Assembly (NCBI GenBank): GCA_028716085.1
Contig: JAQUQM010000007.1
Location: 1-38,367, forward strand
DNA: 38,367 nt
Direction of reading: 5' to 3'
From: Dehalococcoidia bacterium
GTDB lineage: Bacteria; Chloroflexota; Dehalococcoidia; GIF9; UBA5629
Shown here: positions 9,135 to 21,254 of the stretch, in pieces
How the letters are laid out: every line of letters starts with the position of its first letter
How positions within the stretch are numbered: position 1 is the stretch's first letter
The notes under the pieces: generated by a model
The model's database searches: none
The model's input: only the letters and a program-made list of their open reading frames with translations
What the model was told of the DNA's origin: nothing
Translations under genes and position numbers: made by a program

Positions 9135-9187
9135 AACCTAAAATATTCGTTATACTTAATTTGCATATCATTTGGAGGAGGTTAGCA

Positions 9188-9559
9188 ATGCATATAAACC
9201 GCTGGGTTATTTATGTTCTGCTCCCTGTAATGTTCCTGCTGCTTATCTCCGCTGTCTCCTACTCCTGCATGGGTGATCCCTGCGCTTCGAGGGCCGGACA
9301 GTCGTGCTACCAGAAGGGGCAGGACGCAGGTAAAGCGGCTGGATACCAGGAAGGATATGCCCAGGGTAAAAACGAAGGGTACCAGCAGGGCAAGGCGGAA
9401 GGGATTTCAGAAGGACTCCGCCAGTGTCCTGAATGCCCTAAAGTTGAGTGCCCGGCATGTCCGCAATGCCCGTCATGCCCCCAATATTATAATTACAGCC
9501 AGCCGTATTATTACTATCGTTATTGGCCATACGATAATTGGACGCACCCATGGCCATAG
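9188..9559 (+). CDS. Membrane-anchored Cys/Tyr-rich repeat mini-protein, copy 1
   Basis: A 123-residue protein I do not recognise as a named family. The ATG at 9188 is preceded by GGAGGAGG (9174-9181); an in-frame ATG at 9161 precedes the ribosome site and is rejected. Residues 5-26 form a hydrophobic signal or anchor; Cys27 follows in SYSCMG, a non-canonical lipobox. Next comes a repeat of GYxxGYxxGKxEGY type (about 48-78), likely a helical segment. A cysteine ladder follows, C80-x2-C83-x4-C88-x2-C91-x2-C94-x2-C97, mostly as CPxCP, which could bind zinc or another metal. The tail is Tyr-rich. Copy 2 lies 72 bases downstream. Both sit just upstream of the ubiquitin-like operon. Confidence 0.8.
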   Translation: MHINRWVIYVLLPVMFLLLISAVSYSCMGDPCASRAGQSCYQKGQDAGKAAGYQEGYAQGKNEGYQQGKAEGISEGLRQCPECPKVECPACPQCPSCPQYYNYSQPYYYYRYWPYDNWTHPWP

Positions 9560-9631: not shown

Positions 9632-9994
9632 ATGTATATCAACCGCTGGATTTTTTTCACACTGTTGCCTGTGATGTTGCTCTTGCTTTTTTCAGCAGCG
9701 TTCTATTCATGCATGGGTGATCCCTGCGCTACAAAGGCGGGGCAATCATGCTATCAGAAGGGGTTCGATGCCGGCAAAGCATCAGGATACCAGGACGGAT
9801 ACTCTAAAGGTAAAAGTGAAGGGTATCAGCAGGGCAAGGCGGAAGGGATTTCAGAAGGACTCCGCCAGTGTCCTGAATGCCCTAAAGTCGAGTGCCCTGC
9901 ATGCCCACAGTGCCCGTCGTGCCCTCAATATTACAATTACAGTGAGCCATATTATTATTATTACTATAATTATCATCAATGGCCCTATTGGTGA
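9632..9994 (+). CDS. Membrane-anchored Cys/Tyr-rich repeat mini-protein, copy 2
   Basis: A 120-residue paralog of the preceding gene with the same plan: hydrophobic N-terminus (about 5-26), Cys27 in FYSCMG, GYxxGYxxGK repeats, the same six-cysteine CPxCP ladder and a Tyr-rich tail, here containing six consecutive tyrosines. The 17-base leader from GGAGGAGG through the ATG (9618-9634) is identical to copy 1, and bases 9837-9898 are identical to 9383-9444, so the duplication is recent or is being homogenised. The proteins differ mainly in the signal and the tail. Function unknown; an extracytoplasmic metal-binding or surface-scaffold role is a guess. Confidence 0.8.
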   Translation: MYINRWIFFTLLPVMLLLLFSAAFYSCMGDPCATKAGQSCYQKGFDAGKASGYQDGYSKGKSEGYQQGKAEGISEGLRQCPECPKVECPACPQCPSCPQYYNYSEPYYYYYYNYHQWPYW

Positions 9995-10203: not shown

Positions 10204-11739
10204 ATGCGAAGAGCATTGAGGTCTTTGCTTCTCATAGTACCTTTGCTCACCCTGGCCAGCCTGTTGTCTTTCTTGCCATGCACGGCTGCAGCACCGGTCG
10301 GCGTCCAACCTGCCGAATTTGATCAAACCGATCCTATTTTAAAAAGCGGAGTTTATCTGACGGATTTTGAGGTATTTCCACAACCTGAGTCGATCGGATT
10401 AACGCTGAACTTGCCCAGGAGATCATTTCTCACCGGAGAAAATATCCAGGTTGTCGTATCGACGAACACCTCGAGCACTGCCATGACCCTGTATTATGAG
10501 ATCAATGGTGAAAGAACAACACTGACCGGATCCACCATCAGCGGCAGTCAGTCATTTTCCATTAAGGCCCCCGCCGATCCCGGGCCGGTCAGACTGATCT
10601 GCGAGGGCAGTGCCATTGTTATCTACTGGGACACTTGCATAATTTATCAGATATGCGGTTACGATACCAACAATTTGCCCCGTTACTGTCCGTACACTTA
10701 TCAGTGCCAAAAAGAAACGATGGTTTACGGTACGGCCTCCACAGATTTCGTGGTTTACGGGAGGCACACATCCATCTCGGGTAACGTCTATGATTTGCGT
10801 AAAAATCCCGTAAATCAGGCCAGGGTGGAGCTGTCTAACGGCGAATCGAGAACAACATCATCAGATGGATTCTACGAGTTTGCCGATTTTACGCTGGGAG
10901 ATAATTACCGACTGGCGGGGGAGCGTCCTACCGTGGATATAACCATGAAAATCGATGCCGTTGCTTGCCGGCAACAGGTTAACAGCATATCCGTGTCTGC
11001 TGAGCAGCCCAGGACCGGCGTGAATATTAATCTCGATCGTGTTTTTTACCCTCCGGAAATAAATTTAGCTAATTTCACGTTCAGCGCTTTCAGCGGTTGG
11101 CCGGCGGCCAGCACAGTATCGACGTGGGAGGATATTATCGCAATTACATCTACTGGAACGGCAAGAATGTCCAACATTAATTACGGAGGCAGCGGACTGG
11201 CCACAACTCCGGTGGAATTCAAAGCATTTACGCTGGGAGATAAAAATCTATATTTAATACCTGATCCCAGGATGGGCAGGTATCGGCTGGATTTATTGAT
11301 TGAACCGCCCGGCGCTTTTAATCTCTATGCTGCAGCAAAAATCCCTGGGATCGGCCAGCTTCAAGAGGTGAACGTGACGGGAAAGGGCGATAAGCCAGGT
11401 GAAAAATTCTTTATGGACATCAATACGGGCGCGCAATCAGGGCCGGGATGCGCTCCTCCGCAAAAACTTGAATTGGAACCTATTGAGGTCATGGATACCA
11501 CGTCGGTGATCCTGATTGCCGTTGCCGGTGTTTTAGCAGGCCTTTTAGTCTCCTTCTTTTTCCTGAACAGAAAGTACGGCTGGACTGATCGCAATAAAAA
11601 AGCAGCCAAAGGGCTTAGTTTAAAGCAGACGGTCACCGCTGCCCATAAACCTCTTGCCGGCGAACAAGACGGCGTTGGAACAAAGCTTGATGAACCGGGA
11701 GCAGTAAAGCAAATCGGGGAAGGCAAACCTGAAGATTAA
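10204..11739 (+). CDS. Secreted single-pass membrane protein heading the ubiquitin-like operon
   Basis: A 511-residue type I membrane protein, not recognised as a named family. Residues 1-30 are a signal peptide ending near CTAAAP. A large beta-rich ectodomain follows, including a Cys-containing region (about 138-170) and a carboxypeptidase-regulatory-like (CarboxypepD_reg) domain at about 188-235, recognisable by ISGNVYD and SSDGFYEF. A membrane helix spans about 434-454 and a 57-residue Lys-rich cytoplasmic tail ends in GEGKPED. The start follows a GAGGAGGAG ribosome site. The gene is 15 bases upstream of the JAB gene and appears to be the first gene of the operon. The Lys-rich tail could be a conjugation target or docking site for the E1/E2/RING parts; that is inference only. 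Confidence 0.8.
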   Translation: MRRALRSLLLIVPLLTLASLLSFLPCTAAAPVGVQPAEFDQTDPILKSGVYLTDFEVFPQPESIGLTLNLPRRSFLTGENIQVVVSTNTSSTAMTLYYEINGERTTLTGSTISGSQSFSIKAPADPGPVRLICEGSAIVIYWDTCIIYQICGYDTNNLPRYCPYTYQCQKETMVYGTASTDFVVYGRHTSISGNVYDLRKNPVNQARVELSNGESRTTSSDGFYEFADFTLGDNYRLAGERPTVDITMKIDAVACRQQVNSISVSAEQPRTGVNINLDRVFYPPEINLANFTFSAFSGWPAASTVSTWEDIIAITSTGTARMSNINYGGSGLATTPVEFKAFTLGDKNLYLIPDPRMGRYRLDLLIEPPGAFNLYAAAKIPGIGQLQEVNVTGKGDKPGEKFFMDINTGAQSGPGCAPPQKLELEPIEVMDTTSVILIAVAGVLAGLLVSFFFLNRKYGWTDRNKKAAKGLSLKQTVTAAHKPLAGEQDGVGTKLDEPGAVKQIGEGKPED

Positions 11740-11754
11740 AGAAGTAAGAGACCA

Positions 11755-13449
11755 ATGAGTCACGCGAGTATAAGTAAAAATACCAGGATTTTTGGCCATC
11801 CTGAACAGGGCAATGTAGTGGTCACCATATCCAGGAAGGCGCACGATGCTGTTTACGTTCATGGCATTCTGAATCCGAAACAGGAAGTCGGGGGGATTTT
11901 TGTTGGTAACGTCACGCAGAATGAAAGCGGCAAATATAAAATTGATATTATTGCTGCAGTAGCAGCTGAATCTGCGCCGGGAAATAAAACGCAGATGCAG
12001 TTCACCGGTCCTGTATGGCTTGACATGCTGGATAAGGTGCAGACGGGCTACCCCGGTATGCGGATAGTCGGCTGGTATCACACGCATCCGAATATGGGGG
12101 TATTTCTCTCCGATGACGATGTTGCGTCGCATAAAGTAGCCTTCTCCAATCCCTGGCATATTGCGGCAGTCTGCGATCCGCTGAAAAGGCAGTTGGGCTT
12201 TTTCAGCTGGAGAGGTGAGGAACTGCGGTCGCTGGAAGGATTTTATGTAAGTAATTATGATAGCGACAGCCATGCCGATACTCAGCATGAGCTTCAAAAT
12301 CCATTGAAAACTGCGGGCTATGCATCCACAAACAGGACTGCGATTATGGTTATTCCCCTTCTATTTATCATATTCATACTGATTGGAATTACCGTATATT
12401 TATTACTCAGGCAACCTCCGGTTCTCGGTAAAACTGATCCGGCAATTGCCACGGCTTTTAACAGCGATGCTGAAATATGCAACTATCATTACTCCGACAG
12501 ATTGTACACTTATTTTGTGCATCAGAGCGGCGGTATCCAGTTGATGGTTGAGGATCTGAATACAGGCAAGCAAACTTTACAGCATACAGCATATTCCATA
12601 CCTGAACTCATCCGGATCGAGCGCGTCTCTGTACATGAAGCCGATATCGGGGGCCCCAAACAGGCTTACCTTATCATAGAGGCGGAGCAAGTGCAGAGTA
12701 ACCGGAGCGGTCCGGTGATAATCTCTGCCATGATAGAAAGCTCTACGGGGAAGCTTACAGCGCAAAACAGGTTTTCCGTTTCTCCTGACGAATTAAACTT
12801 TGCTGCTGATGATGTTGAAAAAAAACTACAGGTGTCAGCGAATGACGCTAACGGTGTGAATAATCCCCGCTGTGAAATTAATACCGATGAACGATGCAGA
12901 GATTGGATCAGCATTAACGGCCAGGCATCGGGTTATGAGAGCGGGGTGATTACGGTCGTTAAAAAAGGCGCTGGAATGCGCGAAGGAACAAACTCGGGTA
13001 ATTTGATCGTCAACTACGGCCCGCTGGATTGGAATATCAGGTTGCCGGTTCCGATGCAAGCCGAAAAGAAAACAGCCCCTGCAGTGATTCAATCTGGAGA
13101 CGGTATCCGTGTTACTGCCGTGGGCAATTTGCTCAGCCAACCTGCCGCCCCGGGCATTGAGACGGGCTATCAAATATCTGTCTGGGTAAAAAACTTCGAC
13201 GTGCAGGATTTCAATGGACAGCCGCCCGTGATTACCGTTATCACATCCTGCCTCAATACGGGATGCTGGACAATGTCGCCTGTCCCCATAAACATCGTGT
13301 TGCAGAAAGGCGAGGAAAGAGAGATTCCCTACCCTATAAGGCGGAACCCCGGTTCACAATGTACAGAACTGCCCAGGCTGAACACCAGATTGGTCTGGAA
13401 CCTGCATAATGAATATCAGAAGGATTGGGAGGCAAGCGGTGCCAGGTAG
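11755..13449 (+). CDS. Membrane-anchored JAB/JAMM (MPN) isopeptidase-like protein
   Basis: A 564-residue protein with an N-terminal JAB/MPN domain (about 20-165), one membrane helix (about 195-218) and a beta-rich C-terminal region (about 230-564). The zinc peptidase signature is complete: Glu44 in QEVGGIFVG, then His109-x-His111-P, Ser119 and Asp122 in WYHTHPNMGVFLSDDD. JAMM enzymes remove or process ubiquitin-like proteins, cleaving after the modifier's terminal glycine. If the JAB domain faces the cytosol, the C-terminal part is outside and could be a sensor or receptor domain. Its stop codon overlaps the E1 gene start, implying translational coupling. The JAB call is strong; the topology is predicted. 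Confidence 0.9.
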   Translation: MSHASISKNTRIFGHPEQGNVVVTISRKAHDAVYVHGILNPKQEVGGIFVGNVTQNESGKYKIDIIAAVAAESAPGNKTQMQFTGPVWLDMLDKVQTGYPGMRIVGWYHTHPNMGVFLSDDDVASHKVAFSNPWHIAAVCDPLKRQLGFFSWRGEELRSLEGFYVSNYDSDSHADTQHELQNPLKTAGYASTNRTAIMVIPLLFIIFILIGITVYLLLRQPPVLGKTDPAIATAFNSDAEICNYHYSDRLYTYFVHQSGGIQLMVEDLNTGKQTLQHTAYSIPELIRIERVSVHEADIGGPKQAYLIIEAEQVQSNRSGPVIISAMIESSTGKLTAQNRFSVSPDELNFAADDVEKKLQVSANDANGVNNPRCEINTDERCRDWISINGQASGYESGVITVVKKGAGMREGTNSGNLIVNYGPLDWNIRLPVPMQAEKKTAPAVIQSGDGIRVTAVGNLLSQPAAPGIETGYQISVWVKNFDVQDFNGQPPVITVITSCLNTGCWTMSPVPINIVLQKGEEREIPYPIRRNPGSQCTELPRLNTRLVWNLHNEYQKDWEASGAR

Positions 13450-14599
13450 CCGTGCTCGGACTCCCGGACGCTATGATTCGTTGCAGCTTATACCCTGGTG
13501 GCAACAAGCGGATGTGGCCAAGGCCCGTATTATGGTGGTAGGAGCCGGCGCACTGGGCAATGAGATACTGAAAAACCTGGCTTTGCTCGGCATCGGGCAC
13601 ATTTTCATCATAGATTTTGATGATATCGAAGCTTCCAACCTGACGCGGTCGGTTCTTTTCCGTGATGGTGATATAGGGCACCATAAAGCTGAGATTGCCG
13701 CCGGGCGTCTCAAAGACATCAATCCCGATATAAAAGTGGCATTCATGCATGGCAATACCTGTACCGATATCGGCCTGGGAATCGTCAAACATATGGACGT
13801 CGTGATAGCTGCCGTGGATAATTTCGCAGCCAGGATATTCATCAACAGGGCTTGCTTTAAAGTGGGAACACCGTGGATTAATGGTGGTATCATTGAATTG
13901 ATGGGTGAGGCGCACGTCTATATTCCGGGCAAAGGCGCCTGTTATGAATGTAACCTCCCGCCGGATGCTTACAGGGATATTACACGGCGCTTTTCCTGCC
14001 AGATGCCACAGGCGGAAAAGGAGGCCGGCCACGTACCGACGACGCCCACCATAGCATCTATAATCGGGGCTGTGCAGGTGCAGGAAGCGCTCAAAATTTT
14101 GCACCACAGGAAGGTAGAAGGAGGCAGCGGGCTGGTGTTCAACGGAATGAACAACCGGTTTATGGAAGTTCAATTCACCTTCAATCCGGCCTGTTATGTG
14201 CACGATCCCCTCAAAGCGGTCCGCAGGCTGGACAGGAGTGTAACGGATACCAGTTTCAGGGACCTGCTGGATATTGCGGGTAAAGAGCCGGGACCCGATA
14301 TTGCCGTAGAGCTGGATTTCAATATAGTCACGAACCTTTCCTGCTTGTGCGGCTACAGCGACGGCCACGTGAAGAGGTTCGACAGGCTGAACAATGCGGA
14401 CTTAACCTGCCCACGCTGCCAGAAGATGCTGCGGACGGATATCACCTCCATAGTGGATAGATCATCAGCATCGCTCCTCGATTGTACACTGGGGGAAGCA
14501 GGTGTGCCTCCATGGCACATAGTTACGGTCAAGCAGGGATCTGAAAAAACCAGTTATGAATTTTGCGCTGATAAGAAAAGAGTATTAAATTACATATAA
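13439..14599 (+). CDS. E1-like ubiquitin-activating enzyme (ThiF/MoeB fold)
   Basis: A 386-residue E1-like adenylating enzyme. The GTG at 13439 is chosen because GGGAGG (13427-13432) lies six bases before it; it overlaps the JAB stop by 11 bases. A longer frame from ATG 13409 has no ribosome site. Motifs: nucleotide loop GAGALG (35-40), acidic IIDFDD (57-62), N67-x2-R70 and Lys83 of the active site, AAVDN with Asp127, and PTTPTIASIIGAVQVQEALK-like helices (200-219). Cys168-x2-Cys171 precedes Cys187 (RFSCQ), which sits where the thioester cysteine of UBA3-type E1s lies. Cys302-x-Cys304 and Cys324-x2-Cys327 form a C-terminal zinc site. It should adenylate a modifier's C-terminus and pass it to the E2 encoded downstream. 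Confidence 0.92.
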   Translation: MPGSRARTPGRYDSLQLIPWWQQADVAKARIMVVGAGALGNEILKNLALLGIGHIFIIDFDDIEASNLTRSVLFRDGDIGHHKAEIAAGRLKDINPDIKVAFMHGNTCTDIGLGIVKHMDVVIAAVDNFAARIFINRACFKVGTPWINGGIIELMGEAHVYIPGKGACYECNLPPDAYRDITRRFSCQMPQAEKEAGHVPTTPTIASIIGAVQVQEALKILHHRKVEGGSGLVFNGMNNRFMEVQFTFNPACYVHDPLKAVRRLDRSVTDTSFRDLLDIAGKEPGPDIAVELDFNIVTNLSCLCGYSDGHVKRFDRLNNADLTCPRCQKMLRTDITSIVDRSSASLLDCTLGEAGVPPWHIVTVKQGSEKTSYEFCADKKRVLNYI

Positions 14600-14615
14600 G
14601 TAAAGGAGGTTTATT

Positions 14616-15197
14616 ATGGGTGAAATGGAAGTCAAGTTAGTGCGCCTGTGCCCCAATCACGGCCCCACGACTAACTACGATGCCAATTTCAACTGCCTGG
14701 AGTGTGGCGAGCATACCAAGGAAGAGGTGATCACCGGTGATATGGCAGTAAGCACCTATGCTGCGCCGGCAACAACCCTGGCGGAGGTTTCTGCTGCTCG
14801 GAAAAAACGGACCTGCCTGCAGTTCCAGCGAGAGATTGCCGACGACGCCAGGATCTGTCCATATTGCGGCATCAGCCTGGTGGACGGTCCAGTCTCGCCG
14901 GAAACCATTACAGCAGTCGCAGCGGCAGGTGGCGTCATCGGGATTCATGGTTTAGGCCATATGATGCTGGGGCAAATAGCCAAGGCATTTCTCTTACTTT
15001 TCGGCGGACTATTTTTAATCGCGGGAATCGTCGTTTCCATCATCATGGCCATAGATCTCTGGGAGGATATCTATGTTATCCTGGCAATCATACTGGGTGT
15101 CGTGTATATCGTCCTGTTCATATGGCAGGTAATGGATGCCAATGCCAGTGCACGCAGACGCAATCTGAACTTTGATAACCATGGATTGCGCGGCTGA
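14616..15197 (+). CDS. Zinc-ribbon protein with two membrane helices
   Basis: A 193-residue protein of unknown function. The start follows an excellent AAAGGAGGT (14602-14610). The N-terminus holds a Cys/His cluster (Cys12, His15, Cys27-x2-Cys30). A second zinc-ribbon-like segment (Cys67 ... Cys81-x2-Cys84, in ICPYCG) has lost one expected cysteine: Phe70 stands where the fourth ligand normally is. Residues about 117-142 and 146-167 are membrane helices, followed by a short basic stretch and the terminal residues NHGLRG. The LRG ending recalls ubiquitin tails, but no beta-grasp fold precedes it, so it is not called a modifier. It lies between E1 and the RING-like gene and may be a membrane adaptor. 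Confidence 0.8.
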   Translation: MGEMEVKLVRLCPNHGPTTNYDANFNCLECGEHTKEEVITGDMAVSTYAAPATTLAEVSAARKKRTCLQFQREIADDARICPYCGISLVDGPVSPETITAVAAAGGVIGIHGLGHMMLGQIAKAFLLLFGGLFLIAGIVVSIIMAIDLWEDIYVILAIILGVVYIVLFIWQVMDANASARRRNLNFDNHGLRG

Positions 15198-15218
15198 GCA
15201 CATTGATGAGTTGGACTT

Positions 15219-15551
15219 ATGGCTAATCTACTGCTTGGGATAGTCCTCTTTCTGGCATGCGGCGCTATGGTCTTTATCATAGTGTATTTTGCCACGCGCC
15301 AGTACTCGGTGCCGCGGTCGGCCTTTCGCACTGTAGTAACTGCTGATAAACAGCATGATTTGCTCCGGCAAGCGTGGCAGTGCCCCTGGTGCGGCAACGC
15401 GGACTATGACGGCTTAAACCCCCCTTACGTATGTCCTGCCTGTCGCACGGTGCATCACTGGATCTGCTGGGAAAAGTATGGGGGTTGCAGCATTTTCGAT
15501 TGCGAATACTCTCCTGTATCCGCGTCAGGCAAGCCCAGGCAGTTAAGCTGA
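15219..15551 (+). CDS. Membrane-anchored RING-like zinc finger protein (candidate E3)
   Basis: A 110-residue protein with an N-terminal membrane helix (about 3-25) and a RING-like binuclear zinc module. Ligand spacing is C55-x2-C58-x13-C72-x2-C75-x3-H79-H80-x2-C83-x6-C90-x4-C95, with the WxxxGGC signature seen in prokaryotic RING families found next to E2 genes. In eukaryotes such domains bind the E2 and speed transfer to substrate. Here the E2 gene follows 46 bases downstream, so an E3 role at the membrane is the natural reading. The ribosome site before ATG 15219 is weak. The zinc-ligand pattern is clear; ligase activity is inferred from context. Confidence 0.82.
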   Translation: MANLLLGIVLFLACGAMVFIIVYFATRQYSVPRSAFRTVVTADKQHDLLRQAWQCPWCGNADYDGLNPPYVCPACRTVHHWICWEKYGGCSIFDCEYSPVSASGKPRQLS

Positions 15552-15597
15552 CCGGTATTTATCGGGATTGAATTTAGGTATACGGAGGAGCTGGCAA

Positions 15598-16644
15598 ATG
15601 AGAATATTTATCTGGGATTTCACCCACGACAGATATTACCCCGTGCTTACATCTGAAAATACTACGGTTAAGAATTTATTGGCCCAGGCCGTGCCCCAGA
15701 TAGTCAAAGAACGCGGGCCGGGCAGGCAGTTCGTTGCCTACCTGCAGAAGACAGGGGAGCAGCTGTATGTCAAAGAGGATGGGCATTTCTTCAAGAGCGG
15801 TAAGGAAGGTAAGCCTGTGACGCTGCATCCCTGGCAGACCATGTCCGTCGCCGGGGTTGTGGAAAATGAGGTACTTGTACTCTGCTATTTCATTCAACCC
15901 GGGGTAGTGAGCGAGGCGGTGAATGTCGAACAGCGTTTCGCCGATGAATACGAGAAATTGAAGGAACTGGAGGCGAGCTCGGATATGATACGGGTGGAGG
16001 CGGTTGAAGGCAATCCGCCACGGAAATACCGTGTCACCATCAACTGCAAGGGCATGATGCGCAATCCGGTGGATAATAAATTGTATCTGACTGCCAACCA
16101 TGTTCTTGAGATAGATTTGCCGGTGGGCATTTCCGCCTACCCGTACGAGGCCCCTTATATCCGGTGCCTTACACCGCATTTTCACCCCAATATCAGCCCT
16201 GACAATAACCTTGTCTGCACAGGTGTGGAGAGGAAATGGGAGCCGTCGCTCGACCTGGCCTGGCTGGTCTGTCACCTGGCGGACATTATTACGTATCGTA
16301 TTTATGGCACTGATGACCCGTATAACAAAGAGGCGGTGCAGTGGGCGGAAGCGCACAAAGACAAGTTCCCGCTCGACGAGCGCTCATTGTTTAAAGAAGC
16401 TGTGGCGGTGCCGGTAAGCCAGGCTCAGGACACTGCGCTGGTAGCCATAACCGGGCAGTCAGTGATGATCAGCCAGGGTGAACCTGAGCTAACCACTTCG
16501 CCGAAGACCGAAATTGCAGGTACTGCGATCGATGAGCGTGTTTCGAGGCCTAAAGCTGCTTCCAGGTCAAAGTCTGTACGTAAATCAAAATCAACCGCAA
16601 AAAAGAGCCCGGCTGCCAGGACAAGAAAGAAGAAGTCAAGCTGA
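15598..16644 (+). CDS. E2-like ubiquitin-conjugating enzyme with N-terminal beta-grasp-like domain
   Basis: A 348-residue protein, far longer than a bare E2 of about 150. The ATG at 15598 is fixed by GGAGGAG (15584-15590); a TTG-started longer frame is rejected. Residues 1-100 look like a ubiquitin-fold domain: opening strand MRIFIWDF, a helix beginning TVKNLLAQAV, and a closing strand EVLVLCYF. Residues about 110-262 form the UBC domain: YP at 181-182, His196-Pro197-Asn198, active-site Cys207 in NLVCTG, Trp214, and DDPYNKEA (239-246), matching canonical E2 landmarks. The last 35 residues are Lys/Arg/Ser-rich and probably disordered, perhaps for nucleic-acid or membrane contact or as modification sites. 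It is last in the operon. The E2 call is strong; the N-terminal fold is by eye. Confidence 0.92.
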   Translation: MRIFIWDFTHDRYYPVLTSENTTVKNLLAQAVPQIVKERGPGRQFVAYLQKTGEQLYVKEDGHFFKSGKEGKPVTLHPWQTMSVAGVVENEVLVLCYFIQPGVVSEAVNVEQRFADEYEKLKELEASSDMIRVEAVEGNPPRKYRVTINCKGMMRNPVDNKLYLTANHVLEIDLPVGISAYPYEAPYIRCLTPHFHPNISPDNNLVCTGVERKWEPSLDLAWLVCHLADIITYRIYGTDDPYNKEAVQWAEAHKDKFPLDERSLFKEAVAVPVSQAQDTALVAITGQSVMISQGEPELTTSPKTEIAGTAIDERVSRPKAASRSKSVRKSKSTAKKSPAARTRKKKSS

Positions 16645-16673
16645 GTGCCTGAGATTGTCACGTCGTCGTAAAT

Positions 16674-16705
16674 AAAAAGGGCTACTCCTAAGAGCAGCCC
16701 TTTTT
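16674..16705. terminator. Bidirectional intrinsic terminator after the ubiquitin-like operon
   Basis: AAAAAGGGCT (16674-16683) and AGCCCTTTTT (16696-16705) form a perfect 10-bp stem, and inner CTC/GAG bases extend it past one mismatch around a CTAA loop. A-runs and T-runs flank the GC core on both sides, so it can stop the plus-strand operon and the convergent minus-strand surface-protein gene. It defines the 3' end of the conjugation operon. Confidence 0.92.
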
Positions 16706-16729
16706 GCTTTTAATCCTTAGTCTCCGGGA

Positions 16730-17680
16730 TCAGGTTATCCGCCTTGAGAGCAGGAAGAGCAAACCACCGATAACGATAACAAACAGGGCTATAATAGCGT
16801 AGATGAGCGCGTGGTTATTGGTGAAATAATCTACGGTAAAGCTGCCTGCAGGGAAGCCGTTGACAACAACCTGGTAGACACCAGGCTCATTGCGGAATAC
16901 ATTGAAGCTTAACTGCTTCACCTCACCAGCATTCAGCGTTATTCCCTGGTAGGTAACCTCCTGGCCATTCACATACAGGGTGATTTTAGAGCTGCCATTG
17001 GAGTTGCTGTTATTGGATACTGTTGTTCTGACCTCCACCTGCTCACCGACACCCACTTTAGAAGCAGACAGGGAGACGTTCTGTACACGGATATTGGCCA
17101 GCGGCACAGGAGTAGTAGTTGTAGTCGTACCCGCCATACCTCCTACATTACCTCCGCCCGATGACCCTCCTCCTGTATTAAACAAATTTTGGGTGCATCC
17201 TCCTGTACCGAATGACAACTCCTGGCCGTAAGTAATGCAAGCTACTTCAGTAGCAAGAATAATATCATGGAGTGCACCCCCTGCATTGACTCCGGCAAGG
17301 AACCATTTTGCTGGTGGGAACATTCTAGTGAGAACAGGCCCTCGGGCTACGGGTTGAAAATAATACATAGTGCATGGGTTTAGATTGGCTACAACTGCTG
17401 ATATTGTTCCTGTACTTGCATATCTAACCGTGCTTGTGACGTTAGTATATACTCCCCGAGATGTGCCGTACTGGAAAGATACATCAACCCAGGCGCAATC
17501 GCCCAAACTTGTAATGTTTGCCCTCAAAGTTGCCTGGCTGCTGTAGATATCTGTAGCCGGTAATGTTGATATGCTTGCACAAGCAGGGATAGGATCGTCT
17601 TTGGCCGAAGTCGGAGAAGGGAAGATACAAAGCTGGATCAGCAGAACCAGTATGGTGATTATGAACAATACCCTTTTCAC
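16730..17680 (-). CDS. Secreted FN3-like/CARDB surface protein with C-terminal anchor, copy A
   Basis: A type I surface protein of about 316 residues. GTG at 17680 is preferred as start because GGAGG lies five bases upstream; the in-frame ATG at 17692 overlaps that ribosome site. Order: signal peptide (to about residue 25), a fibronectin-like domain with the TLPATDIYSSQATL and YGTSRGVYT patterns, a Gly/Ser/Thr-rich linker (GGGSSGGG and a run of six threonines), a CARDB-like adhesion domain beginning NIRVQNVSLSASKVG, a membrane helix and a short basic tail. Its last half is identical in protein to copy B, while the N-terminal domain differs substantially. It has its own promoter (17734-17763). 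An adhesion or cell-envelope role is inferred from the domains. Confidence 0.85.
   Translation of the reverse strand: MKRVLFIITILVLLIQLCIFPSPTSAKDDPIPACASISTLPATDIYSSQATLRANITSLGDCAWVDVSFQYGTSRGVYTNVTSTVRYASTGTISAVVANLNPCTMYYFQPVARGPVLTRMFPPAKWFLAGVNAGGALHDIILATEVACITYGQELSFGTGGCTQNLFNTGGGSSGGGNVGGMAGTTTTTTPVPLANIRVQNVSLSASKVGVGEQVEVRTTVSNNSNSNGSSKITLYVNGQEVTYQGITLNAGEVKQLSFNVFRNEPGVYQVVVNGFPAGSFTVDYFTNNHALIYAIIALFVIVIGGLLFLLSRRIT
16746..17230. repeat. Near-identical 485-bp direct repeat, copy A
   Basis: This block matches 17944-18428 at a constant offset of 1198 bases with only about three substitutions found by eye, all silent. It covers the linker, CARDB domain and membrane anchor of the two paralogous surface proteins. 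Such identity next to diverged coding sequence points to recent duplication or gene conversion. Confidence 0.9.
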
Positions 17681-17690
17681 AATTTCCTCC

Positions 17691-17835
17691 ATGGGCTACT
17701 TAATCGATTGCAAACCTAATCCACCCGGTTTTGATTATACGCTGGTTGAAATTCACGCGTCAACAGGTCGCTGAGCTTGAAGGGATGTAGGGAAGGTATT
17801 AAAACAACCTCAGCAAAGTGTCCACGTCACCGCTG
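17691..17835. repeat. Promoter-leader direct repeat, copy A
   Basis: Bases 17691-17770 are identical to 18871-18950, covering the leader and promoter of both paralogs. The similarity continues with a few changes and a five-base length difference to 17835 (matching up to 19020), reaching into the last codons of the trypsin-thioredoxin gene in the second copy. Confidence 0.9.
17734..17763 (-). promoter_or_regulatory. Sigma-70 promoter of surface-protein copy A
   Basis: Read on the minus strand: TTGACG (17763-17758), an 18-base spacer, then a perfect TATAAT (17739-17734). It predicts a leader of about 50 bases to the GTG start at 17680. The identical promoter precedes copy B. Confidence 0.8.
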
Positions 17836-17927: not shown

Positions 17928-18860
17928 TCAAATTCTTCGTTTCGAGAGCAGGAAGAGCAAACCACCGATAACGATAACAAACAGGGCTATGATAGCGTAG
18001 ATGAGCGCGTGGTTATTGGTGAAATAATCTACGGTAAAGCTGCCTGCAGGGAAGCCGTTGACAACAACCTGGTAGACACCAGGCTCGTTGCGGAATACAT
18101 TGAAGCTTAACTGCTTCACCTCACCAGCATTCAGCGTTATTCCCTGGTAGGTAACCTCCTGGCCATTCACATACAGGGTGATTTTAGAGCTGCCATTGGA
18201 GTTGCTGTTATTAGATACTGTTGTTCTGACCTCCACCTGCTCACCGACACCCACTTTAGAAGCAGACAGGGAGACGTTCTGTACACGGATATTGGCCAGC
18301 GGCACAGGAGTAGTAGTTGTAGTCGTACCCGCCATACCTCCTACATTACCTCCGCCCGATGACCCTCCTCCTGTATTAAACAAATTTTGGGTGCATCCTC
18401 CTGTACCGAATGACAACTCCTGGCCGTAAACAGGATCAATCGGGATGAAGTGGGAAGTAGCATCATTGAGCACTCCCCATGTATTAACTCCGGCAAGAAA
18501 CCATTTCCCTTGTGGGTGCATGTTAAGAACAAAACCTATGGCTGCAGGCCGAAAATAGTACATGGTGCATGGATTAAGGTTAGTTGCCAGTGAAGATATT
18601 ATTCCAGTGTTTGCACACACTACGGGATTTGTAAAGGATGTATATACTCCCGGAGATGTGCCGTATTCGAATCGCACGTTAGCCCCGGCGAAATCCCCCA
18701 GACTGGTAATATTTGCTTTTAAAGTTGCCTGATTACTATAAATATCCGTGGCGGGCAGCGTTGTTATATTTATAACAGCAAGATTGGCCGAGGCTGTTGC
18801 AGGAAGAAAAATAATTTGAATTGCTAGCATCACTGCTATTATGAACAATATCCTTTTCAC
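17928..18860 (-). CDS. Secreted FN3-like/CARDB surface protein with C-terminal anchor, copy B
   Basis: A paralog of copy A, about 310 residues from GTG 18860, which has GGAGG five bases upstream (the in-frame ATG at 18872 overlaps that site). The layout is the same: signal peptide, fibronectin-like domain with YGTSPGVYT, Gly/Thr-rich linker, CARDB-like domain, membrane helix and a basic LLSKRRI end. From the linker onward the protein is identical to copy A until the last few residues, whereas the N-terminal domain is only about half identical and has small insertions and deletions near the LNDATSHFIPIDPV segment. It has an identical promoter of its own. Exposed-domain variation on a constant anchor resembles surface diversification. 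Confidence 0.85.
   Translation of the reverse strand: MKRILFIIAVMLAIQIIFLPATASANLAVINITTLPATDIYSNQATLKANITSLGDFAGANVRFEYGTSPGVYTSFTNPVVCANTGIISSLATNLNPCTMYYFRPAAIGFVLNMHPQGKWFLAGVNTWGVLNDATSHFIPIDPVYGQELSFGTGGCTQNLFNTGGGSSGGGNVGGMAGTTTTTTPVPLANIRVQNVSLSASKVGVGEQVEVRTTVSNNSNSNGSSKITLYVNGQEVTYQGITLNAGEVKQLSFNVFRNEPGVYQVVVNGFPAGSFTVDYFTNNHALIYAIIALFVIVIGGLLFLLSKRRI
17944..18428. repeat. Near-identical 485-bp direct repeat, copy B
   Basis: Partner of 16746-17230, encoding the same linker, CARDB domain and anchor in the second surface protein. Confidence 0.9.
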
Positions 18861-18870
18861 AACTCCCTCC

Positions 18871-19020
18871 ATGGGCTACTTAATCGATTGCAAACCTAAT
18901 CCACCCGGTTTTGATTATACGCTGGTTGAAATTCACGCGTCAACAGGTCGTTGAACTGCGCTTGAAGGGATGCAGGGAAGGTATTAAAACAACCTCAACA
19001 AAACGTCCACGTCACCGCTG
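18871..19020. repeat. Promoter-leader direct repeat, copy B
   Basis: Partner of 17691-17835. Its right-hand end overlaps the last codons of the trypsin-thioredoxin gene (stop at 18984-18986), showing that the duplicated unit included the end of that gene. Confidence 0.9.
18914..18943 (-). promoter_or_regulatory. Sigma-70 promoter of surface-protein copy B
   Basis: On the minus strand: TTGACG (18943-18938), an 18-base spacer and TATAAT (18919-18914), identical to the promoter of copy A 1180 bases away. It lies between the protease stop and copy B, so copy B need not depend on read-through. Confidence 0.8.
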
Positions 19021-20114
19021 GACAGTGAATCATATCGCTTTACCTTGATGTTACCATCTTTATCCAGAAAATAGGCTGCGGGAATTTTATCCGGCTTGAA
19101 CAGGCCTGTGACATCACCCGTGCTGTCCGGCGCCACCGATAGTTTAACATCATTTTGCTTTATCCAGCTTTCCACATCCTGAATTTCTACCTGGCTGAGA
19201 ATGACAGCCACGGTAAGCTGCTTCTCCGGCCAGTAATCGTAAACTTTCTGAACGGAACGTATCATCTCTATGCATGCCGGGCATTCGGCGGATACAAATA
19301 AAAGGATCGCCCGCTTGCCTTTCAGCGAATTTAATGATACGGCTTGTCCACCTGTAGTGGTCAGATTGAAATCAGGTGCCCTGCATCCTGTATTCGGGCA
19401 TACCGGCCGGGCTGTTACTTCAGCGGGTGGTTTTTCGGGTAACTTGCCTCCGCCGAGCTCGGTCAGCATATCCCTTGCTTCGTTCGATGCTATAGCGAAG
19501 TTTATGCAGCCTTCCTCGATGTTTACATACTTGCTGCTGACTATACCTATAACATTGCCCTCGCTGTCTACCATCGGCCCGCCGCTGCTCCCCGGGTCGG
19601 TCCTGGCGCTGGTTTTTAAAATACTGGTACCCCGCATCCTGGAGAAAGAGCACAATATGCCTGTGGTCAGCCTGAGGTTATTTCCCGTGCTGCTTACACC
19701 GGGATAGCCCAGTATAACTATAGGACTGCCCGTTTGCAGGTCATCCGACTCGGAAGAATCGCCCAGTGCGGCGAAGGGGAATCCGCTGCTTTCCTGCGGC
19801 AGCTTGATGATGGCCAGGTCCCTCGTTTTGTCAATGGCGACAACGTTGCCCAGGTAGGCGGCGCCTTTGTTCATTATTACGGTGGCTACCGTGTCGTCGC
19901 CCGTCAGGTGCTGGCAGGTCAGCACGTAACCATCCGCGCTTACAATGACCCCCGAGCCGACCCTGTTCTCCACCATTATGCAAACAACGGCAGGGAAAAC
20001 CTTTTTAATATTGTCATAATTCGGTGGCATGGTGCAGGAAGACAGCACCATGGTAATTATGGCTGCCAGTGAGATAGAAAAGATGTAGATATTTTTTTTA
20101 GCCATTGCAGTCAT
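18984..20114 (-). CDS. Lipoprotein fusing a trypsin-like serine protease to a thioredoxin-fold domain
   Basis: A 376-residue secreted protein. The start is taken at ATG 20114 (ATG 20105 is equally possible); neither has a good ribosome site, and the longer frame to 20228 adds a tail before the signal peptide. Residues about 7-26 are a signal peptide ending VLSSC, with Cys27 the lipidation site. The protease domain (about 35-220) has a full triad: His69 in TCQHLTG, Asp99 in TRDLAII, Ser177 in DPGSSGGPM, as in DegP/HtrA-type enzymes, but no PDZ domain follows. Instead a peroxiredoxin/TlpA-like domain (about 244-376) begins RAPDFNLTT and carries C278-P-A-C281. It may cleave or repair misfolded or oxidised envelope proteins. 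Neighbours are the surface-protein pair. Confidence 0.88.
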   Translation of the reverse strand: MTAMAKKNIYIFSISLAAIITMVLSSCTMPPNYDNIKKVFPAVVCIMVENRVGSGVIVSADGYVLTCQHLTGDDTVATVIMNKGAAYLGNVVAIDKTRDLAIIKLPQESSGFPFAALGDSSESDDLQTGSPIVILGYPGVSSTGNNLRLTTGILCSFSRMRGTSILKTSARTDPGSSGGPMVDSEGNVIGIVSSKYVNIEEGCINFAIASNEARDMLTELGGGKLPEKPPAEVTARPVCPNTGCRAPDFNLTTTGGQAVSLNSLKGKRAILLFVSAECPACIEMIRSVQKVYDYWPEKQLTVAVILSQVEIQDVESWIKQNDVKLSVAPDSTGDVTGLFKPDKIPAAYFLDKDGNIKVKRYDSLSSGDVDVLLRLF

Positions 20115-20164
20115 ATTACCACAGTTGCGGCTTGTATATTTAGCTGATATTGAAAAAGTGTTTC

Positions 20165-20173
20165 TGATATAAT
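20165..20173 (+). promoter_or_regulatory. Extended -10 promoter of the DUF2804 gene
   Basis: TGATATAAT gives a perfect TATAAT (20168-20173) with the TGn extension. No good -35 element lies at normal spacing, as is common for extended -10 promoters. The transcript would start near 20180, about 40 bases before the ATG. Confidence 0.6.
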
Positions 20174-20219
20174 CGGGCGCGTACAGAAAGACAACGAGAC
20201 CAGGGCGCGGAGGTACGTA

Positions 20220-21254
20220 ATGGCTCAATATGAAATCGTGAATCAGGCTCCACTGCTTGATAAAGAGGGCAATCTCACGGCTATCGGCTGGGCGCGGCAG
20301 CCGCTGCTTGAACCCAACCTGGAGAATGTAAATATCTATGGCCTGAAGTTTTTACAGCCGCTGCGCATCAAGCGCTGGCAGTATTACGGCATCACCACGC
20401 CCACACATTTCTTCTCCTTTACCATCAGCCATGTGGGCTATATCGGGTCGATTTTCGCCTATATTTTGAACTTCGAAACCGGCGAATATCACGAAGAGAC
20501 GCTGACCGTGCCTTTTGGAGCCGGGGTAGTATTGCCCCGCGACAGCACGGAGGGCGACTGCGAGTATAAGAAAGGGGAGATCCACCTGCATTTCACCATC
20601 GAGAATGGCAGCCGGCGTGTACTGGCCGTCAACTGGCCTCGCTTCGGCGGGAAGGATTTGAAGGCGCTGGTGGATTTGGAACTTGTCGATGGACATGAAT
20701 CGGTGGTGAATGTTTTTCCTTTCGAAAATAAACGGTTTTTCTATACCCGCAAGGTAAACTGCATACCTGCCAGCGGCGTAGTGGAATACGGGCAGGTATA
20801 TCAGGTAACGCCCGATAGTTGCCTGGGCACGTTGGATTGGGGACTGGGAGTCTGGCCTTACCGCTCGTTCTGGATCTGGGGCAGCACCTCGCAGTTCCTG
20901 CCCGACGGCCGCACTATCGGTCTGAACCTGGGCGGCGGCATCGGCAACAACCCGGATGTGAACGATAATGCCGTGATACTTAACGGAAAAGTCCACAAGA
21001 TTGGTGTTGTGGATTTCAAATACGACACCTCGGACTTCAAAAAGCCCTGGACTATGGCTTCGCAGGATGGCCGACTTTCCCTGAAGTTCATGCCTTTCTT
21101 CGAACGTGTGGCGAAGACTGATTTAAAAGTGCTCTCCAGTGAAGTGCACCAGATGTTCGGGCGCTATAACGGTATAGTGACACTGGACAACGGCGAGAAA
21201 CTGGAGATCAAGGACCTGATTGGCTGGGCGGAAGAGCACCACGCGAAGTGGTGA
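20220..21254 (+). CDS. DUF2804 family protein
   Basis: A 344-residue cytoplasmic protein matching the DUF2804 family by its overall pattern: an N-terminal G-N-L-x-x-x-G-W-A-R-x-P motif, KRWQYYGI and THFFSFTISHVGY, then KALVDLEL, WGLGVWPYRSFW and a C-terminal MFGRYNG. The fold is thought to be a lipocalin/hydroxyneurosporene-hydratase-like beta barrel; no catalytic role is established, and I assign none. The ATG follows GGAGGT with six-base spacing. The gene stands alone, divergent from the trypsin-thioredoxin gene and convergent with the AT-rich nuclease gene. GC content is high here (42 of 60 bases in 20881-20940). Confidence 0.85.
   Translation: MAQYEIVNQAPLLDKEGNLTAIGWARQPLLEPNLENVNIYGLKFLQPLRIKRWQYYGITTPTHFFSFTISHVGYIGSIFAYILNFETGEYHEETLTVPFGAGVVLPRDSTEGDCEYKKGEIHLHFTIENGSRRVLAVNWPRFGGKDLKALVDLELVDGHESVVNVFPFENKRFFYTRKVNCIPASGVVEYGQVYQVTPDSCLGTLDWGLGVWPYRSFWIWGSTSQFLPDGRTIGLNLGGGIGNNPDVNDNAVILNGKVHKIGVVDFKYDTSDFKKPWTMASQDGRLSLKFMPFFERVAKTDLKVLSSEVHQMFGRYNGIVTLDNGEKLEIKDLIGWAEEHHAKW

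What the first reader, a model, noticed from the sequence alone, without database searches (positions are those of the whole stretch)
10204..16644. A complete, largely membrane-tethered ubiquitin-like conjugation operon in a bacterium
Seen in sequence: six co-directional genes end at a strong terminator and encode JAMM/JAB, E1-like, RING-like and E2-like proteins with intact motifs, plus two membrane proteins. Established: E1-E2-JAB and RING-bearing loci are known in scattered bacteria and in Caldiarchaeum, and Bil-type loci act in phage defence. What looks unusual is that the JAB, the RING and the zinc-ribbon protein all carry membrane helices and the operon opens with a secreted single-pass protein, implying modification at the cell membrane. 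The E2 active-site region (HPN, Cys207, Trp214, DDPYN) is closer to eukaryotic E2s than most bacterial versions. Inference: an envelope-linked ubiquitin-like pathway, possibly signalling or surface quality control rather than defence.
Basis: partly seen in the sequence, partly recalled or inferred. Interest (0 to 1): 0.95.

Follow-up and report, generated by a model that had tools for sequence, protein, structure and literature searches.

The report
Membrane-anchored bacterial ubiquitin-like tagging operon
A few uncultured Chloroflexota bacteria carry a conserved operon for an entire ubiquitin-like protein-tagging machine anchored in the cell membrane, and the tag itself seems to be made as the front end of the E2 enzyme instead of as a separate protein.

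Summary
Genes at 10204-16644 encode a JAMM peptidase, an E1, a RING and an E2 with intact motifs, plus a secreted protein and a zinc-ribbon membrane protein, ending at a terminator. The same six-gene order occurs in four other genomes of the family with different flanking genes; pieces occur in two more. The operon belongs to a large, already predicted kind: YukD-type Ubl + E1 + E2 + RING + JAB loci, found here in Chloroflexota, Planctomycetota, Armatimonadota, Bacillota and others. Of 72 E2-bearing relatives, 70 encode a YukD-type Ubl; the two exceptions belong to the window's clade. In this clade the first 102 residues of the E2 are a diverged Ubl (profile E = 4.7e-7, far above 200 shuffles; model pLDDT 86, ubiquitin fold). 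It is the most constrained part of the operon (dN 0.03-0.07) and ends in an invariant Pro-Gly followed by a variable linker. No other Ubl of this kind was found in these genomes. Most likely: an inner-membrane Ubl cascade whose modifier is made as an E2 fusion, probably freed by the membrane JAB (inferred). An envelope role is plausible; defence is unsupported. New variant of a known kind.

The parts
9161..9559 (+). Small membrane-anchored or lipoprotein-like protein with GY-x-(E/K)G repeats, Cys-Pro motifs and a Tyr-rich end, copy 1 (ATG likely at 9188). A seventh gene linked to the operon.
   Evidence: Orthologues directly follow the E2 gene in L019, L020 and L022, E 1e-21 to 1e-24
9632..9994 (+). 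Second copy of the same small protein
   Evidence: sequence
10204..11739 (+). Secreted single-pass protein: signal peptide, beta-rich ectodomain with CarboxypepD_reg, C-terminal helix, Lys-rich cytosolic tail
   Evidence: Pfam 1.1e-4, below cut-off in the window, above it in orthologue L022; topology; alignment
11755..13449 (+). JAMM/JAB peptidase (residues about 20-165), one membrane helix (about 196-214), extracytoplasmic C-terminal half (BACON-like in orthologues)
13409..14599 (+). E1: ThiF-type adenylation domain, candidate catalytic C197, C-terminal extension of about 110 residues with CxC...CPxC zinc motif
14616..15197 (+). Zinc-ribbon protein with 2-3 membrane helices
15219..15551 (+). 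Membrane-anchored RING protein: N-terminal helix, cytosolic C4HC3-like RING of the Prok-RING_1 type
15598..15903 (+). Ubl domain, residues 1-102 of the E2 protein, ending ...CYFIQPG; the only recognisable modifier
15598..16644 (+). Ubl-E2 fusion: Ubl, variable linker, UBC domain (about residues 116-268; HPN 196-198, C207, W214), Lys-rich tail
16673..16706 (+). Intrinsic terminator (hairpin with T run)

Best explanation
The operon encodes a self-contained ubiquitin-like conjugation cascade working at the cytosolic face of the cell membrane. The modifier is the N-terminal Ubl domain of the E2 protein, made as a Ubl-E2 fusion. The membrane-anchored JAMM peptidase cuts after ...QPG, giving a Ubl with a C-terminal glycine and a free E2; the E1 adenylates that glycine (possible thioester on C197) and passes it to E2 C207; the membrane-tethered RING brings the charged E2 to membrane protein substrates, and the same JAMM enzyme removes the tag. 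The secreted protein with its Lys-rich cytosolic tail, the zinc-ribbon membrane protein and the small membrane-anchored protein are substrates, adaptors or sensors. Shown: domain identities, motifs, gene order, predicted topology, Ubl homology and its constraint. Inferred: cleavage, conjugation, substrates and envelope function.
For: Enzyme domains and catalytic residues intact in 5 genomes; fixed six-gene order with different flanks. 70 of 72 E2-bearing relatives have a YukD-type Ubl, the exceptions being this clade. The E2 N-terminal domain is homologous to those Ubls: hhalign E 4.7e-7, score 40 against a maximum of 19 in 200 shuffles, ubiquitin fold. It is the slowest-evolving part (dN 0.03-0.07); PG is invariant and the linker after it is variable, at the position where sister Ubls end in AG. 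No other Ubl of this kind in clade genomes. Nearest solved JAMM is Rpn11; a Caldiarchaeum Rpn11-type JAMM processes pro-ubiquitin (PMC5654768). Purifying selection on all genes.
Against: No direct evidence of cleavage. Sister loci carry a Ubl-E2 fusion beside a free Ubl, so the fused copy may be regulatory. Ubls with Pro before the last Gly are unusual. The genomes are drafts (91-96% complete for the better ones), so a very diverged separate modifier cannot be excluded; ThiS-family proteins exist in three relatives. The structure model used sister sequences in its alignment.
Confidence: 0.5

Rival explanations
1. The Ubl domain stays attached to the E2 as a regulatory part (for example binding the E1, the RING or the E2 back side), and the real modifier is another, unrecognised small protein. 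The cascade is otherwise as above.
For: In sister loci the E2 carries a fused Ubl in addition to a free Ubl (28 of 80 loci), so a permanent fused copy is the ancestral-looking state there; free Ubls are more conserved than fused ones (422 of 494 pairs).
Against: No free Ubl of this kind found by three searches and no ThiS match in the window genome; in this clade the fused Ubl is the most constrained part of the operon and keeps a terminal Gly.
Confidence: 0.27
2. An anti-phage defence system that tags phage proteins, in the manner of Bil or CBASS Cap2/Cap3.
For: Other bacterial E1-E2-JAB systems act in defence (PMC10097602; Bil reviewed in PMC11354881); patchy distribution (5 of 30 family genomes).
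Against: PADLOC gives only generic E1 and JAB matches, none to the RING or E2 above noise; neighbours are housekeeping genes (UvrB, RuvA, RuvC, FtsK, RNase J); secreted and membrane partners are strictly kept.
Confidence: 0.1
3. A sulfur-carrier or biosynthetic pathway using an E1-like enzyme, not protein tagging.
For: E1 domains of the ThiF family are shared with sulfur-carrier systems.
Against: E2 catalytic Cys, HPN and Trp are invariant; by profile score the E1 is nearer to UBA7/UBA1/SAE2 (8.5e-42 for the best) than to ThiF or MoeB (3e-30, 5e-28); no biosynthetic genes in the operon; RING and JAB are membrane-bound.
Confidence: 0.05
4. A decaying remnant of a sister-type system that has lost its free Ubl and no longer works.
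For: The free Ubl seen in sister loci is missing; the clade sits on a long branch in the E1 tree.
Against: All catalytic residues intact in 5 genomes and dN much lower than dS for every gene.
Confidence: 0.03

Closest known systems
Bacterial YukD-type Ubl / E1 / E2 / RING / JAB operons (predicted by Burroughs, Iyer and Aravind 2011, Mol Biosyst 7:2261, own knowledge, reference confirmed; Pfam Prok-RING_1)
   Same: Same E1, E2, RING and JAB families; relatives fetched here have the same components in one operon
   Different: No separate Ubl; the only recognisable Ubl is fused to the E2. Extra secreted, zinc-ribbon/TM and small anchored proteins; JAB has a membrane helix and an extracytoplasmic half
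Chloroflexota type-A loci (E1 - RING/TM - Ubl-E2 - free Ubl - JAB; for example L025, L030, L054)
   Same: Ubl fused in front of the E2 at the same place; RING membrane-anchored; E1 41-43% identical
   Different: They also have a free Ubl ending in TAG; their JAB has no membrane helix (0 of 33); different gene order; no secreted protein or zinc-ribbon/TM gene
Caldiarchaeum subterraneum ubiquitin operon (PMC5654768)
   Same: E1, E2, small RING and an Rpn11-type JAMM that processes a pro-modifier
   Different: There ubiquitin is separate and ends in GG after processing; no membrane anchors are described in the passages read
BilABCD and CBASS Cap2/Cap3
   Same: E1, E2-type and JAB parts
   Different: No RING; E1-E2 profiles match only the generic E1 part here
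PolyUbl operons of Iyer et al. 2006 (PMC1779556, row 6e)
   Same: Some encode a Ubl fused to an E2-like domain
   Different: Those E2 domains are described as inactive; here the E2 catalytic residues are intact and a RING is present

Membership tests
YukD-Ubl / E1 / E2 / RING / JAB operons | E1 of the family | tested here: met
   ThiF 5.4e-57; 38-43% identity to E1s of sister operons
YukD-Ubl / E1 / E2 / RING / JAB operons | Active-type E2 (HPN, Cys, Trp) | tested here: met
   UQ_con 1.8e-10; profile match to sister E2s E 4e-26
YukD-Ubl / E1 / E2 / RING / JAB operons | RING of the Prok-RING_1 type | tested here: met
   5 of 5 orthologues match, best 3.6e-10; the window copy is below the curated cut-off
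YukD-Ubl / E1 / E2 / RING / JAB operons | JAB peptidase with intact JAMM motif | tested here: met
YukD-Ubl / E1 / E2 / RING / JAB operons | Separate YukD-type Ubl gene | tested here: not met
   None in the operon or genome; a homologous Ubl is fused to the E2
YukD-Ubl / E1 / E2 / RING / JAB operons | E1 charging, E2 thioester and covalent conjugates | not testable with these tools
   Needs biochemistry
YukD-Ubl / E1 / E2 / RING / JAB operons | C-terminal UFD-like domain in the E1 | tested here: inconclusive
   A conserved C-terminal extension with zinc motif is present; no PDB sequence match shows a UFD fold
BilABCD / CBASS Cap2-Cap3 defence systems | Specific Bil or Cap2/Cap3 proteins | tested here: not met
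   Only partial matches over the generic E1 domain: BilD 2.9e-9, E1-E2 models 1e-17
BilABCD / CBASS Cap2-Cap3 defence systems | Protection against phage | not testable with these tools
   Needs experiment

The most novel reading that the evidence does not exclude
A bacterial conjugation pathway at the membrane in which the modifier exists only as the N-terminal domain of its own E2 and is released by a transmembrane JAMM peptidase carrying an extracytoplasmic sensor region, so that an outside signal would control release of the tag and hence tagging inside.
Probability: 0.35. Interest if true: 0.82.

Novelty: new variant of a known kind. Interest (0 to 1): 0.62.

Why it matters
RING-bearing Ubl systems in bacteria have been predicted since 2011; I know of no functional study of one, and none turned up in the library searched. 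This clade offers a compact version with one modifier, one E1, one E2, one RING and one JAMM at a membrane, in which the modifier is traceable although it looked absent. If the E2-fused Ubl is the modifier, it is a new way of supplying one, and the membrane JAMM with an outside domain suggests how tagging could be coupled to the cell surface. It also shows that the 'missing' modifier in such loci may be hidden inside the E2.

Tried and rejected
Free Ubl elsewhere in the genome: searched with the clade Ubl, the sister Ubl, YukD and ThiS; none in the window genome. A +1 frameshift giving a free Ubl: in the window CAA CCC GGG GTA read in the +1 frame gives Pro-Gly-stop, but orthologues use CCG and do not give this; coincidence. 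The first structure job (full E2, five sequences) had mean pLDDT 46 and was not used, apart from the order of secondary-structure elements. A weak first profile match of the clade Ubl to 11 free Ubls (probability 9%) was superseded by the 110-sequence profile with shuffled controls. L073 seemed to lack a free Ubl; it is partly masked by N and present. Genus-mate G001 seemed to lack the operon; it is split over contig ends. Proteasome link: no proteasome-family match in G000, G003 or G023, one weak in G013. UFD fold of the E1 C-terminus: only weak zinc-finger matches in the PDB, so not claimed. Downstream CARDB genes: not conserved with the operon. A PDB search with the RING gave only weak, implausible matches, so the RING rests on Pfam and motif. 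The 2011 paper itself is not held; it is cited from own knowledge and from a reference list. One count printed (73 fused) came from a script error and was recomputed as 28.

Full report
OBSERVATION. The window is one whole contig of a 2.46 Mb draft genome, 96% complete. Six co-directional genes at 10204-16644 are packed with gaps of 15, -41, 16, 21 and about 46 bp and end at a hairpin terminator, about 16673-16706, -17.6 kcal/mol, z -3.7. Pfam gives JAB, ThiF and UQ_con above the curated cut-offs, and Prok-RING_1, CarboxypepD_reg and double zinc ribbon below them for the window proteins. Prok-RING_1 is matched by all five orthologues, best 3.6e-10.

CONSERVATION AS A UNIT. The E2 was sought in 100 relatives and found in four other genomes of the same family. 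All four carry secreted protein - JAB - E1 - ZnR/TM - RING - E2 in that order, at 30-35% identity to the window (JAB, RING, secreted protein), 46-49% (ZnR/TM) and 54-58% (E1, E2), while flanking genes differ. The zinc-ribbon and secreted proteins occur in these same genomes, with one further genome each. Those two further genomes hold pieces of the operon: genus-mate G001 has the small gene, the secreted protein, JAB and the start of the E1 on broken contigs, and G007 has a diverged JAB - E1 - ZnR/TM followed by a membrane-helix start at a contig end. A seventh gene, a small membrane-anchored repeat protein, follows the E2 in three relatives and is present twice upstream of the operon in the window. 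A class-wide sample of 393 genomes gave no case outside the family. Two of the relatives appear in the named collection as a Dehalococcoidia MAG (BS750m-G42) and a Chloroflexi MAG (M_DeepCast_200m_mx_194).

THE WIDER FAMILY. An E1-profile scan of GTDB contigs gave 368 relatives, of which 80 were kept. They lie in Chloroflexota, Planctomycetota, Armatimonadota, Bacillota and single genomes of other phyla. Of these 80, 72 have an E2 in reach and 70 of the 72 have a YukD-type Ubl; 69 of the 80 have a free Ubl and 28 a Ubl fused to the E2. The two E2 loci without one are the window clade's own members. Free Ubls in Chloroflexota match Pfam YukD at about 1e-10 to 1e-12. They end in (T/V)AG, either at the stop (59 of 81) or, in most of the others, followed by a few residues; all 36 Ubl-E2 fusions keep TAG followed by a variable linker. 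In the E1 tree the window clade is one group (100/100) on a long branch; its exact position is unsure because the root is arbitrary.

WHERE IS THE MODIFIER? No free Ubl was found in clade genomes by the clade Ubl, the sister Ubl or Pfam YukD, and no ThiS-family match in the window genome. The first 102 residues of the E2 protein, however, align with the YukD-type Ubls: hhalign against 110 of them gives probability 92.5%, E = 4.7e-7 and score 40 over residues 1-95, against a maximum of 19 in 200 column shuffles and 9.5 for the reversed profile. Aligned through the E2, the invariant PG of the clade falls where sister Ubls end in AG. A model of the domain has pLDDT 86 and pTM 0.78, and its best structural matches are ubiquitin (TM up to 0.83 by target length). 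That model used sister sequences in its alignment, so the statistic is the independent evidence. The domain has dN 0.03-0.07 between relatives, the lowest of the operon, and is on the whole slightly more conserved than the catalytic domain; right after PG, identity to the window copy falls to 15-36%. In sister systems the free Ubl likewise exceeds the E2 in conservation (446 of 494 pairs). This fits a modifier and its processing point, but conservation alone does not show cleavage.

TOPOLOGY AND MECHANISM. Hydropathy and flanking charges put the JAB catalytic half, RING and zinc ribbon in the cytosol, with the JAB C-terminal half (BACON-like in 4 of 5 orthologues) and the body of the secreted protein outside. 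The secreted protein ends in a Lys-rich cytosolic tail, as does the E2. E1 and JAMM are nearest, among solved structures, to eukaryotic UBA7/UBA1/SAE2 and Rpn11. I therefore favour a cascade at the inner membrane face: JAMM releases the Ubl from the E2 fusion, E1 activates it, E2 C207 carries it, RING directs it to membrane protein substrates, JAMM reverses. Precedent for JAMM processing of a pro-modifier exists in Caldiarchaeum, where the E2 also modifies its own C-terminal lysine (PMC5654768). The main rival is that the fused Ubl is a permanent regulatory domain, as it may be in sister loci that also have a free Ubl. A Pro before the last Gly is unusual for a modifier, though known Ubls vary at that place (UFM1 ends in VG, ATG8 in FG; own knowledge).

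DEFENCE? PADLOC matches are generic and neighbours are housekeeping genes. Defence is possible but unsupported.

COMPARISON AND NOVELTY. By E1, E2, RING and JAB this belongs with the YukD/E1/E2/RING/JAB operons predicted in 2011 (own knowledge; reference confirmed). It fails one defining feature, the separate Ubl, so I file it as a variant that works like them and not as a plain member. Membrane RINGs are general in Chloroflexota type-A loci (36 of 36) and membrane JABs common in other phyla (30 of 36), so tethering as such is not new. New here are the E2-fused Ubl as the only recognisable modifier, the clade-specific membrane and secreted partners, and a JAB with an extracytoplasmic region linked to them.

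Noticed in passing
window 16730-17692 and 17928-18872 (-): Tandem paralogous CARDB proteins with signal peptide and C-terminal helix, sharing a near-identical C-terminal half; not conserved next to the operon in relatives.
   Followed up: partly
window 18984-20228 (-): HtrA-like trypsin domain fused to an AhpC/TlpA-type thioredoxin domain in one protein.
   Followed up: no
window 15895-15910: Reading CAA CCC GGG GTA in the +1 frame gives Pro-Gly followed by two stops, just where a free Ubl would end; not conserved in relatives, so probably coincidence.
   Followed up: yes
L060, L074: E1 of this family next to a short RING protein (about 70 aa) with no E2 recognised nearby, including a Nitrospira MAG.
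   Followed up: no
L085 7409-8917, 11022-12926; L114: Ruminococcaceae loci where Ubl-type and E2-type domains are parts of long proteins (407-502 aa and 634-643 aa).
   Followed up: no
L068, L128, L089: Planctomycetota loci with one Ubl, one E1, two E2-like, two JAB and two or three RING genes in a row.
   Followed up: no
L086, L082, L069, L116, L075 and others: Free Ubls with 2-11 residues after the conserved AG, which would need trimming before activation, presumably by the neighbouring JAB.
   Followed up: partly
L133, L134 (G001 C186 and C106): The genus-mate seems to have two secreted-protein genes of the operon type at different contig ends, possibly a duplication.
   Followed up: partly
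G013:C49:9081-9485: Weak proteasome-family match (3.1e-6) in one clade genome.
   Followed up: no
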